From contig JAJQAC010000067.1 of assembly GCA_021204025.1 (NCBI GenBank), positions 1 through 34,866 on the forward strand: a stretch of DNA of 34,866 nucleotides, given 5' to 3'. Position numbers and translations under genes: made by a program. Position 1 is the first letter of the stretch. Every line of letters starts with the position of its first letter. The notes beneath the pieces were generated by a model that saw only the letters and a program-made list of their open reading frames with translations, was not told the DNA's origin and did no database searches. The DNA is from Clostridiales bacterium. Lineage in GTDB: Bacteria; Bacillota; Clostridia; Lachnospirales; Lachnospiraceae. This document shows, piece by piece, positions 1,988-29,697 of the stretch.

Positions 1988-2923
1988 ATGAGCGAGATCA
2001 TCAAAGAGATCCGACAGCGGCTGTTTGCGCTTCAGGATATGCAGTACCGGGATTTTCAGAGCAGGCTGATGCCGACCGTCGCAAAAGAGACGGTCATCGG
2101 CGTGCGGATGCCAGAACTGCGCCGACTGGCAAAAGAACTGTCCGCGAGAGAAGACATCAAAGAATTTCTGGAAGATCTTCCTCATGGTTATTATGAAGAA
2201 AATAATCTGCACGGGTTTCTGATCATGCAGGAGCGCGATTACACACGTTGTATCGAGAAGCTGGAAATCTTTCTTCCCTGTATCGATAACTGGGCAACCT
2301 GCGATCTGCTCAGACCAAAGATATTTCAGAAAAATCTGCAGGAACTCATTCAGAAGATTCCAGGCTGGCTGGGGTCAGAGCATCCCTATATCATTCGCTT
2401 CGGGATAGAGATGCTCATGGTATACTATCTGGATGAGGCATTCTCGCCGGAATATCCGGAGTGGGTGGCCGGGCTGAGTCAGAAGAAAAGCTCTCAATCG
2501 GTTACTGTGAATTTGCTTTTTGAGCATGCCAATCATGTAGTCCCTGATCGCGGAGAAAGTCCGCAGAGGACATTTTTTACGTCGGCACTTGGTGAGCCGG
2601 ATGGTTTTCCGGCGAACTTAGTACCGCTACGTGAAAACCTAAGTGCGAACGGTCCTCGGAGGACTTTCTCCGCGATCAGGGACGGACGATTTGTCAATAA
2701 TACACCTGATGACAGGCGATACTATGTCAACATGATGATCGCCTGGTATTTCGCAACCGCGTTGGCAAAGCAGTATGAAACCACGCTTCCCTACATAGAA
2801 AATCATGTGCTCGATACCTGGACTCACAATAAAACGATTCAGAAAGCAATCGAGAGTGATCGGATCAGCGAAGAACATAAGGCATATCTGAGAACGCTGC
2901 GGGTCAGGCGTGCCCTTCCTTAA
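1988..2923 (+). CDS. AlkD-like DNA alkylation repair protein carrying an in-frame repeat
   Basis: A 311-residue HEAT-like protein of the AlkD / DNA alkylation repair family, which removes positively charged alkylated bases. The N-terminal part (GVRMPELRRLAKEL, DNWATCDLLRPKIF) and C-terminal part (YYVNMMIAWYFATALAKQ, LDTWTHNKTIQKAI) look typical. Between them, residues 184-237 (VVPDRGESP...DGRFVN) are encoded entirely by a palindromic repeat element. Residues about 163-183 and 238-243 also have no obvious family counterpart, as relatives usually pass almost directly from EWVA to a YYVNMM-like segment. The insert would fall between two helices of the repeat fold, so the protein may still fold with a disordered loop. 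The ATG at 1988 follows GGTGAGGAAGAGAA. The 3' end overlaps the convergent nudC gene by 20 bases. Activity is uncertain. Confidence 0.8.
   Translation: MSEIIKEIRQRLFALQDMQYRDFQSRLMPTVAKETVIGVRMPELRRLAKELSAREDIKEFLEDLPHGYYEENNLHGFLIMQERDYTRCIEKLEIFLPCIDNWATCDLLRPKIFQKNLQELIQKIPGWLGSEHPYIIRFGIEMLMVYYLDEAFSPEYPEWVAGLSQKKSSQSVTVNLLFEHANHVVPDRGESPQRTFFTSALGEPDGFPANLVPLRENLSANGPRRTFSAIRDGRFVNNTPDDRRYYVNMMIAWYFATALAKQYETTLPYIENHVLDTWTHNKTIQKAIESDRISEEHKAYLRTLRVRRALP
2537..2698. repeat. palindromic hairpin element, copy 1 (inside alkD-like gene)
   Basis: The outer arms 2540-2562 and 2661-2683 are perfectly complementary over 23 bases. Inside follow a 3x3 internal loop (gca/gga), a 6-bp stem GAGGAC (2566-2571)/GTCCTC (2652-2657), and an inner stem TTTTTACGT (2574-2582)/ACGTGAAAA (2629-2637). 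Compared with copy 2 there is an extra 46-base insert at the tip of the inner stem that contains its own GCCGGA/TCCGGC hairpin. The unit starts GTAGTCCCTGA and ends GTCAAT. From GTAGT to TCAAT it is 162 bases, i.e. 54 codons in phase with the host gene and without a stop. The exact ends are inferred from comparison with copies 2 and 3. Confidence 0.85.
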
Positions 2924-3881: not shown

Positions 3882-3997
3882 GTAGTCCCTGAGAGGAAAC
3901 ATATCCGCAGAGGACATTTTTCACGTCTACGTGAAAACCAGAGTGCAAACGGTCCTCGGAGGATATGTTTCCTCTCAGGGACGGGCGATTCATCAAT
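3882..3997. repeat. palindromic hairpin element, copy 2 (nudC-metF intergenic)
   Basis: The outer arms 3885-3906 and 3961-3982 are perfectly complementary over 22 bases, but their middle sequence differs from copy 1. The internal architecture is the same: gca/gga internal loop, GAGGAC (3910-3915)/GTCCTC (3952-3957), inner perfect hairpin TTTTCACGT (3918-3926)/ACGTGAAAA (3929-3937), and a single-stranded AGTGCAAACG-type stretch on the 3' side. The ends are GTAGTCCCTGA and GGGCGATTCATCAAT. The left flank ATGCCAAT (3871-3878), with GTTACT further out, is shared with copy 1. Confidence 0.85.
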
Positions 3998-22285: not shown

Positions 22286-22353
22286 GTAGTACCTGAGAAG
22301 AAAAAATATCCGCAGAGGATATTTTTTCTTCTCAGGTGTGGACACTTGTCAAT
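22286..22353. repeat. palindromic hairpin element, copy 3 (minimal form)
   Basis: Perfect 21-bp arms (22291-22311 with 22317-22337) close a 5-base loop GCAGA. It begins GTAGTACCTGA and ends GGACACTTGTCAAT, matching the ends of copies 1 and 2, and retains the left internal motif CCGCAGAGGA. It lacks the whole central module, as if the inner stem had been deleted precisely. The arm sequence differs again from the other copies, and the conserved CCCTGA tip is changed to ACCTGA with the matching change TCAGGT on the other side, i.e. a compensatory pair. The arm includes a run of six T, so it may also terminate transketolase transcription. Confidence 0.8.
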
Positions 22354-28746: not shown

Positions 28747-29352
28747 TTAAGCTGTGCGCACCGCCGGATAGACGGCCTTGAGGCGACAATAGAGCAGATA
28801 TCCGACAAAGAAATTCAATGAGAGCTTGATGAGATTAAACGGGATCGTCGCCATAACGATAAAGGTTGTCAGGTTGGTGATCGCCGGATTGATGGAAGCA
28901 ACCATCGTTACAACAGCATTCACAGAGACACCCATCGCTTTTGCGTAGAGCGGAAGGGTGATGCATGCGTTGCAGAAGCAGGAAAACGTGGTGCGGATCA
29001 GAACGCTGGAGCTGAGACTCACAAGGACAGCGCTGCGGTTTCTGCCCATTTTCTGATAGATCAGCCAGAGAGGCATAACAAAGAGCGCGATGCCAAGCAG
29101 GTTTGCCAGTTCGCCGACATACATCGTGTTGGTACCGACGGTGATCAGTTTAATGATAATCTTGATCGCTTCCACCCAGGCGGCGGAGACCGGACCCATC
29201 AGAAAGAGGGCGACGACGGTCGGTACGTCGCTGAAATCGACCTTATAAAAAGGCGGCATCATCGGCACGGAAAATTCCAGAGACATGAGTACGCCTGCGA
29301 CGGCGGCCAGCATAGCGGTGGTGATCAGAGTTTGAAGATTGTGGTTTTTCAT
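28747..29352 (-). CDS. ribU: riboflavin ECF transporter substrate-binding component
   Basis: A 201-residue, five- to six-helix membrane protein of the ECF S-component type. LITTAMLAAVAGVLMSLEFSVPMMPPFYKVDFSDVPTVVALFLMGP matches RibU, with the PXXKXDXSDXP-like loop near the riboflavin site. It works with a shared ECF energising module that is not encoded here. The frame is open to 29541, but AGGAGGATTTTATC before the ATG at 29352, and the position of the regulatory terminator upstream, fix the start. An FMN riboswitch in the leader confirms flavin function. Confidence 0.9.
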   Translation of the reverse strand: MKNHNLQTLITTAMLAAVAGVLMSLEFSVPMMPPFYKVDFSDVPTVVALFLMGPVSAAWVEAIKIIIKLITVGTNTMYVGELANLLGIALFVMPLWLIYQKMGRNRSAVLVSLSSSVLIRTTFSCFCNACITLPLYAKAMGVSVNAVVTMVASINPAITNLTTFIVMATIPFNLIKLSLNFFVGYLLYCRLKAVYPAVRTA

Positions 29353-29482
29353 GATAAAATCCTCCTTTTGTGGTTCGGGGGGATAACACAGCGCAGATGA
29401 TCGTGGAGGACAGGACAACCGGATTGGGAGATTTTCCTGCCCGGAGGCTTTTTGTTCCACAGGATGTACTTCCTTATGGAAT

Positions 29483-29514
29483 AAAAAAAGCCTCACATCC
29501 ACGGGGATCTGAGA
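29483..29514 (-). terminator. riboswitch-controlled terminator before ribU
   Basis: On the minus strand CTCAGATCC and GGATGTGAG (complement of 29514-29491) form a stem with one G/G mismatch, followed by GC and seven T. It lies between the FMN aptamer and ribU and is the likely expression platform for premature termination when FMN is bound. Confidence 0.75.
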
Positions 29515-29562
29515 CTGTATCGGATTCATCCAAATATGCAAAAAACATATTTTGATGAAGCT

Positions 29563-29674
29563 CTTCTCTCATCCAGACTGTAACTGTCGGTTCCGGAATT
29601 GCACCAGATCAGCCGCCAATGGCGGGTCGCGGACTGTAACCGCCGGTAGGGAATTGCGCCCTGCCCCGAAGAAC
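29563..29674 (-). promoter_or_regulatory. FMN riboswitch (RFN element)
   Basis: Reading the minus strand, the conserved FMN aptamer blocks occur in order: TTCGGGGCAGGG, AATTCCCTACCGGCGGT, a variable stem (CCGCGACCCGC...), GGTGCAATTCCGGAACCGACAGT and AGTCTGGATG with closing AGAAG. This matches the RFN consensus and its multi-branched fold. It controls ribU. Confidence 0.95.
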
Positions 29675-29697
29675 TGTTTATTTTGTTTTCATTTCAT

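What the first reader, a model, noticed from the sequence alone, without database searches (positions are those of the whole stretch)
2537..2698. Hairpin repeat family whose outer arms differ between copies but stay perfectly paired
Copies at 2537-2698, 3882-3997 and 22286-22353 share the tips GTAGT(C/A)CCTGA and (GG)AC...TCAAT, and the left internal block CCGCAGAGGA. The two full copies also share GGTCCTCGGA and a TTT(T/C)ACGT...ACGTGAAAA inner stem. The outer arms (23, 22 and 21 bp, no mismatches) have clearly different middle sequences in each copy, and even the tip pair changes in a compensated way in copy 3. Selection on structure, or repair that copies one arm onto the other, must maintain this. 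A fixed transposon terminal repeat would not look like this. The architecture resembles neither attC sites nor REP/BIME elements that I know. It may be an undescribed folded mobile element or RNA motif.
Basis: seen in the sequence. Interest (0 to 1): 0.85.

Follow-up and report, generated by a model that had tools for sequence, protein, structure and literature searches.

The report
Hairpin repeats with self-matching arms
A short repeated DNA element, present in dozens of copies in many related bacteria, carries a conserved folded core clamped by a long hairpin whose two arms change sequence freely yet stay almost perfectly matched; it appears to be an undescribed family and a natural record of one DNA arm being copied onto the other.

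Summary
The three window copies belong to a family with 65 cores extracted from the host genome (G000) and 48 from a sister species (G006). A core-only covariance model matches 159 of 397 genomes of the host's family. In 398 genomes drawn from the phylum it matches five, four of them of that family. Full copies have a ~90-nt three-way-junction core, a GNRA loop in 111 of 113 copies, and compensated changes in 26 of 29 pairs between species. An outer hairpin (21-24 bp in the host, up to 56 bp elsewhere) clamps the core; its sequence differs between species and, in the host, between loci.

In 108 copies, 2203 of 2268 fixed outer pairs are Watson-Crick. Arm-length changes are symmetric in 12 of 14 clear cases. 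At 12 orthologous sites, 40 of 47 changed pairs are compensated. I read the arms as kept matched mainly by arm-to-arm DNA copying (template switching), and the core as conserved as folded RNA or single strand. RNA-level selection is a serious rival. Copies disperse like MITEs/REPs, but neither Y1 transposases nor reverse transcriptases track them. Rfam has no match. What moves it and what it does remain unknown.

The parts
2540..2562 (+). copy 1, outer left arm (23 bp, perfect)
2563..2660 (+). copy 1, conserved core (internal loop, P2, P3, P4)
   Evidence: R1 match 2538-2688, 174.7 bits
2566..2571 (+). copy 1, P2 left strand GAGGAC
2574..2637 (+). copy 1, P3 long hairpin with CUUAG-like and tandem-GA internal loops
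2643..2650 (+). copy 1, P4 mini-hairpin; GNRA tetraloop GCGA at 2645-2648
2652..2657 (+). copy 1, P2 right strand GTCCTC
2661..2683 (+). copy 1, outer right arm (23 bp, perfect)
2684..2698 (+). copy 1, right tail GGACGATTTGTCAAT, similar to the tails of many copies in this species
1988..2923 (+). DNA-alkylation-repair-like ORF (PF08713) that holds copy 1 in frame
3885..3906 (+). copy 2, outer left arm (22 bp, perfect)
3907..3960 (+). copy 2, shortened core (much of P3 missing)
3961..3982 (+). copy 2, outer right arm
22291..22311 (+). copy 3, left arm of a solo hairpin without core (21 bp)
22312..22316 (+). copy 3, loop GCAGA, matching the 5' side of the core
22317..22337 (+). copy 3, right arm

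Best explanation
These are copies of a dispersed, non-autonomous, palindromic repeat family. A full unit is a ~90-nt core that folds as a three-way junction (P2, long hairpin P3 with CUUAG/CUUAG and, in most sequences, tandem-GA loops, and mini-hairpin P4 with a GNRA loop), closed by a long outer hairpin. The core is the conserved, functional part, most likely recognised as a folded RNA or single strand by whatever spreads the element; that step is inferred. The outer arms act as a clamp, so their sequence is free to drift. When one arm mutates, replication template switching between the arms copies one arm onto the other, restoring either the old or the new pair, so arms diverge between loci and species while staying nearly perfect (inferred from the pattern). 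Shown: the family, the predicted fold, the covariation, arm drift at orthologous sites, symmetric length changes. Not shown: transcription, transposition, the partner protein and any cellular role.
For: Family and fold. Arms: taking the inner 21 pairs of all 108 copies with context and choosing nothing, 2203 of 2268 are Watson-Crick, 23 G-U and 42 other; two copies shifted by one base give 25 of those 65. On stems chosen by score the figures are 2389, 18 and 20 of 2427. With the feet found independently on each side, 12 copies have symmetric arms of a length other than 23, 2 have clearly asymmetric ones, 1 more has a doubtful right foot, 87 are 23/23 and 6 were not placed. At 12 orthologous sites 40 of 47 changed pairs are compensated (the 13th pair was set aside because one deletion shifts its register). 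On one alignment, changed cells are one-sided in 8 of 118 for the arms and in 20 of 74 for the core. Left and right arms are each 77-80% identical within a genome, the outer core parts 93-95%. GNRA loop in 111 of 113 copies. Template switching between inverted-repeat arms is a described process (passages of PMC8794818 and PMC8604942) and is proposed for mitochondrial palindromes (passages of PMC6649704).
Against: The scarcity of G-U intermediates is not special to the arms: across species the core has only 18 one-sided against 172 two-sided cells. Core alleles differ between orthologous sites as if exchanged, so gene conversion from other copies or re-insertion may also replace arms. At 2 loci (62/105 and 4/72) the two species carry elements in opposite orientation, tips included, which looks like separate insertions. 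Co-directional neighbours favour one orientation in G000 (23 against 8, p 0.011) and weakly in G006 (20 against 9, p 0.061), which hints at RNA-level selection; other species show no bias (12 against 15). In G248 and G098 the arms are alike between loci. No pre-insertion site was found, and neither protein family tested tracks the element.
Confidence: 0.5

Rival explanations
1. Structured non-coding RNA under ordinary selection: the transcribed hairpin is needed and compensatory mutations are fixed one after the other, in the arms as in the core.
For: Conserved core with GNRA tetraloop, frequent tandem GA and compensated changes in 26 of 29 pairs; one-sided cells are about as rare in the cross-species core (18 of 190 changed) as in the arms (8 of 118); orientation bias along the upstream gene in G000; copies lie nearer gene 3' than 5' ends in both species.
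Against: Symmetric length changes (12 against 2) and single compensated pairs at otherwise near-identical orthologous elements (0/90, 19/75). G-U is not in clear excess over other mismatches in the arms (18 against 20 on chosen stems, 23 against 42 on fixed pairs). No orientation bias in the other species sampled.
Confidence: 0.3
2. REP-like element moved by a RAYT/Y1 (HUH) transposase as single-stranded DNA; GTAG at the foot is the guide and YCAAT tips are the cleavage sites (both roles by analogy, recalled).
For: GTAG 5' of the hairpin in G000, G006 and G098, and YCAAT-like tips in G000 and G006; divergent pairs of copies resemble BIMEs.
Against: Y1_Tnp is present in 83 of 159 element-bearing and 136 of 238 other genomes (odds ratio 0.82, p 0.35) and missing from 28 of 56 element-rich ones (the 397 genomes are taken to be the same in both searches). 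G417, G248 and G334 copies show no GTAG foot. REP stems are mostly 6-9 bp (PMC3733652, passages).
Confidence: 0.08
3. Arms and cores are homogenised and reshuffled by ectopic gene conversion between copies, and this alone explains paired changes.
For: Core alleles differ between orthologous sites as if exchanged; cores mostly share species-specific variants, GCAAGC/GCAAAC in G006 and GCGAGC/GCGAAC in G000.
Against: 47 of 54 left arms compared in G000 are distinct, and single compensated pairs differ at otherwise near-identical orthologous elements (0/90, 19/75).
Confidence: 0.1
4. Unrelated local inverted repeats or terminators that look alike by chance.
For: None found.
Against: Long shared core, shuffle and slide controls, 69 copies of a core 16-mer against 1 reversed control.
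Confidence: 0.02

Closest known systems
REP / BIME (GTAG-tagged repeats, RAYT-associated)
   Same: Dispersed palindromes, mostly between genes; GTAG at the 5' foot in the host species, its sister and G098; divergent pairs of copies; REP sub-families with complementary stem changes are described (passages).
   Different: Arms of 21-24 bp in the host and up to 56 bp elsewhere instead of mostly 6-9 bp; a conserved ~90-nt branched core; no link with Y1 transposases. The same paper reports that G-T pairing is often seen in REP stems; it is rare here.
Rickettsia palindromic elements (RPE)
   Same: About 150 nt, palindromic, can sit in frame inside a gene, as copy 1 does (RPE description from passages of PMC10969869).
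   Different: Only copy 1 was examined in this respect; 13 copies overlap a predicted ORF, most of them short. I know of no such core fold or freely varying perfect arms in RPEs (recalled).
MITEs (ERIC, Correia, BOX and others)
   Same: Short, multi-copy, palindromic, without a gene of their own.
   Different: MITE terminal repeats are shared between copies (recalled); here 47 of 54 left arms in the host are distinct. No target-site duplication was established.
Palindromes thought to be kept by template switching (Nematomorpha mitochondrial coding palindromes; RNA hairpins of Monttinen and Loytynoja)
   Same: Nearly all arms perfect, many repeats species-specific, location inside a coding gene possible (passages).
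   Different: Not a dispersed family with a shared conserved core.

Membership tests
REP/GTAG repeats (RAYT-mobilised) | GTAG tetranucleotide at the 5' foot of the hairpin | tested here: inconclusive
   Common in G000 and G006 and present in G098, but not in the G417, G248 and G334 copies shown
REP/GTAG repeats (RAYT-mobilised) | Associated Y1 tyrosine transposase in the genome | tested here: not met
   Y1 missing from 28 of 56 element-rich genomes; odds ratio 0.82 over 397 genomes
REP/GTAG repeats (RAYT-mobilised) | Short stem, 20-40 bp element | tested here: not met
   Hairpins of 136-188 bp for most full copies, arms 21-24 bp
MITE | Terminal inverted repeats shared between copies and with an autonomous element | tested here: not met
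   47 of 54 left arms distinct in G000; no autonomous element was looked for beyond the Y1 and RT tests
MITE | Target-site duplication | tested here: inconclusive
   Of four sites examined, two are deletion derivatives that keep element tails and two hold altered copies; none is an empty site
Rfam RNA families | Match above a family's gathering score | tested here: not met
   only sub-threshold miRNA-type hairpins on the element; other matches (FMN riboswitch, T-box, weak Clostridiales-1) lie elsewhere in the searched stretches
Rickettsia palindromic elements | In-frame insertion in coding genes | tested here: inconclusive
   Copy 1 is in frame in two species and absent from homologues in 5 relatives; most other copies lie between predicted genes
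Retroelement (RT-mobilised) | Reverse transcriptase (RVT_1) in element-bearing genomes | tested here: not met
   28 of 46 element-rich and 25 of 34 other genomes (80 genomes of my choice)
Integron attC | R'/R'' core sites and an integron integrase | not tested
   Not pursued

The most novel reading that the evidence does not exclude
A family-wide class of bacterial mobile element whose main conserved part is a riboswitch-sized folded core. The core is moved, as RNA or single-stranded DNA, by an unidentified machinery that is neither a Y1 transposase nor a reverse transcriptase of the tested families. The long arms are not inherited as fixed sequence but are continually re-made by copying one from the other.
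Probability: 0.3. Interest if true: 0.92.

Novelty: new variant of a known kind. Interest (0 to 1): 0.8.

Why it matters
If right, about 40% of the sampled genomes of one bacterial family carry a conserved folded element that Rfam lacks. It also offers many natural palindromes in which arm-to-arm copying can be measured locus by locus, a direct test of the proposal that template switching, rather than successive double mutation, keeps long hairpins paired. The conserved core gives a handle for finding the machinery that spreads it.

Tried and rejected
Y1/RAYT partner: PF01797 over 397 genomes, no association. The two Y1 genes found in the host have stops inside the matched stretch and no copy of the element was seen beside them in the sequence read; 'IS200-like' is a recalled label. 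Reverse transcriptase partner: no association. Phages and plasmids: no blastn match to copy 1 at E 0.01. Viral contigs: two hits of a 20-base pattern, L279 and L280, do not show the element when folded and lie in predicted coding sequence in L280; taken as chance. Empty sites in the sister species: of four places looked at (entries 3, 22, 85, 98), two are deletion derivatives and two hold altered copies. Three places seemed to hold the element in opposite orientation; one of them (8/71) is a separate neighbouring copy, since a left-arm remnant of the true orthologue lies beside it, which leaves two (62/105, 4/72). Spacer inversion by arm switching does not explain 62/105 and 4/72, because the tips are inverted too. 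A general orientation bias was not seen outside G000/G006.

Rows dropped before a count: orthologous pair 28/100; pairs in opposite orientation and partial pairs, which did not pass the filter; 5 of 113 cores without enough context on both sides (108 used); copies without 23-bp stems in the identity figures (54 of 65 and 36 of 48 used); reverse-strand shadow matches of R1. The script preferred equal arm lengths, so feet were found again independently, with the same 12 symmetric cases.

Literature: searches were aimed at the family and gave no description in their listings; two were aimed at mechanism and RPEs. Passages only were seen of PMC3733652, PMC8794818, PMC6649704, PMC8604942, PMC10969869 and PMC8040213; PMC7202029 was seen in a listing. 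PMC8040213 reports 3161 candidate RNAs, 250 of them palindromic; its tables were not read, so this family could be among them.

Full report
What was checked. The window holds three copies as described: 23-, 22- and 21-bp outer arms without mismatch, shared tips and inner blocks. Copy 1 folds far better than its shuffles (z -9.7 as RNA, -9.1 as DNA).

The family in the host. CCGCAGAGGA occurs 55 times in the 3.04-Mb genome against 5 reversed controls. The core 16-mer TACGTGAAAACYTRAG, with up to 2 mismatches, occurs 69 times against 1. A 32-mer with up to 3 mismatches gives 68 places in the host G000 and 44 in G006, the only one of 60 relatives with a match. G006 is very probably the MAG U_126911, since its contig C22 and record JAJBUA010000067.1 have the same length and both end in copy 1. 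A covariance model of 30 copies (R1) was searched in both. A script extracted 113 cores from the stretches held, 65 in G000 and 48 in G006, mainly 90, 96 and 139 nt long; the long form carries an extra hairpin. Window copy 2 has a shortened core and copy 3 none.

The arms. The inner 21 outer pairs of all 108 copies with enough context, with nothing chosen, are Watson-Crick in 2203 of 2268 cases, G-U in 23 and otherwise mismatched in 42; two copies shifted by one base account for 25 of the 65. On stems chosen by score the figures are 2389, 18 and 20 of 2427. Left arms are 77% (G000, 54 copies) and 80% (G006, 36 copies) identical on average, while the outer parts of the core are 95% and 93% identical; 47 of 54 left arms in G000 and 31 of 36 in G006 are distinct. 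With feet found independently on the two sides, 87 copies have 23/23 arms, 12 have symmetric arms of another length, 2 are clearly asymmetric, 1 has a doubtful right foot and 6 were not placed. In the 30-copy alignment 25 of 51 pairs have a double compensated change, 164 cells against 43.9 +/- 6.0 in shuffles, and every slid control is far lower.

Orthologous sites. Flank comparison gave 12 same-orientation pairs, two of them on one flank only, and 36/112 was added. Without 28/100, the 12 pairs left contain 226 unchanged, 40 compensated, 6 one-sided and 1 doubly changed non-Watson-Crick pair. Some sites differ by a single compensated pair (0/90, 19/75), others by 4 to 7. Core alleles differ between species at the same site. 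At two more loci the element lies in opposite orientation with its tips inverted. The orthologue of copy 2 keeps only the right arm and tail, and two of four further places examined are deletion derivatives.

The family beyond the genus. R1 found matches in 127 of 397 genomes of the host's family. Because a long hairpin alone can score with R1, a core-only model R2 was built from 26 sequences of many species. R2 matches 159 of 397 family genomes at E 1e-4 and 5 of 398 drawn from the phylum, 4 of them of the family (host included) and one, G799, of another family. At most 10 candidates per genome were scored, so counts per genome are lower bounds; 56 genomes reach that ceiling. Four G799 copies folded, two of them on the other strand, show the core motifs and different long arms. 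Other species have arms of different sequence, with uninterrupted Watson-Crick arms of 56 bp in L188 and 48 bp in L192. In G417 and G334 the arms differ between loci; in G248 and G098 they are alike. Over 51 hairpins of these species, 1091 of 1119 arm pairs are Watson-Crick, 6 G-U and 22 other, found by a script that looks for pairing and so favours it.

The core. Across 26 sequences, 26 of 29 pairs show a compensated change, 172 cells against 49.3 +/- 5.8 in shuffles. Constant or frequent features are CUUAG facing CUUAG, tandem G-A mismatches, ACCGCU and a two-pair mini-hairpin with a GNRA loop. The loop is GNRA in 111 of 113 copies of G000 and G006, closed by C-G or T-A in 107 of these and by T-G or C-T in 4; in other species 46 of 64 candidate places read GNRA, 14 did not fit the search expression and 4 had another loop. 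Rfam 15 has no match above threshold on the element.

Copy 1 inside a gene. Copy 1 lies in frame in a DNA-alkylation-repair-like ORF. Homologues in five relatives run straight across the site and lack about 77 residues; the extra stretch exceeds the hairpin by about 60 nt upstream and 15 nt downstream of its tail. In G006 the frame is also open on both sides, read from two contig ends separately, although arms and core differ.

Where the copies sit and what tracks them. Neighbouring predicted genes are more often convergent than divergent (14 against 5 in G000, 10 against 4 in G006). Co-directional genes favour one orientation in G000 (23 against 8) and weakly in G006 (20 against 9), but not in other species (12 against 15). 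Y1 transposases (83 of 159 against 136 of 238 genomes) and reverse transcriptases (28 of 46 against 25 of 34) do not track the element.

Reading. Ordinary compensatory evolution of an RNA stem passes through one-sided, often G-U, states and rarely gives symmetric length changes (general knowledge). In the host alignment, changed cells are one-sided in 8 of 118 for the arms and 20 of 74 for the core; across species the core has 18 of 190, so this contrast holds within the species only. The symmetric length changes and the single compensated pairs at orthologous sites are the stronger points for arm-to-arm copying. Template switching between inverted-repeat arms is described (passages of PMC8794818 and PMC8604942; E. 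coli assay in PMC7202029, listing only) and proposed for mitochondrial palindromes (passages of PMC6649704). I therefore assign the arms mainly to arm-to-arm copying and the core to conservation of a folded RNA or single strand. Selection for perfect double-stranded RNA or for a DNA cruciform would look similar.

Limits. No expression data, no observed movement, no clean pre-insertion site, no partner. Gene calls are simple ORF scans. E-values of R1 and R2 are rough. The absence of a description rests on Rfam 15 and on the listings of four searches of open papers.

Noticed in passing
G006 C23 end (L174), C34 end (L175), C97 start (L176, L278): Three copies are interrupted inside the core at the same base, just before P4, by the same foreign sequence, and the contigs end there. 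This looks like an insertion sequence that targets the core; its own gene was not found, and a plasmid search with its end gave nothing.
   Followed up: partly
G000 C29 (L014, L078), C71 (L123), C10 (L002, L004): Extra tandem copies of the right half of the element only (P4, P2 right strand, right arm, tail).
   Followed up: no
G000 C15, C63; G006 C79, C110, C117; also G417 C35, G307 C3, G130 C30: Neighbouring copies often form divergent pairs: of 9 pairs within 2 kb in G000 and G006, 5 are (-,+), 4 (+,+), none convergent. Divergent pairs in the other three species appear in the capped lists.
   Followed up: partly
L053-L056 (G000 C55 and C14): Two Y1 transposase genes with stops inside the matched stretch, near contig ends.
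   Followed up: partly
G000 C54 (L030/L136), C10 (L004), and C55 (L056): Another repeated sequence (GGAAGTTGCTGACGCAACTTCCGATAAGTTATATTATGGG-like) lies near two copies and at one Y1 gene.
   Followed up: no
window 29557-29677 (-): FMN riboswitch (RF00050, 111.7 bits) ahead of the ORF at 28747-29541 (-).
   Followed up: no
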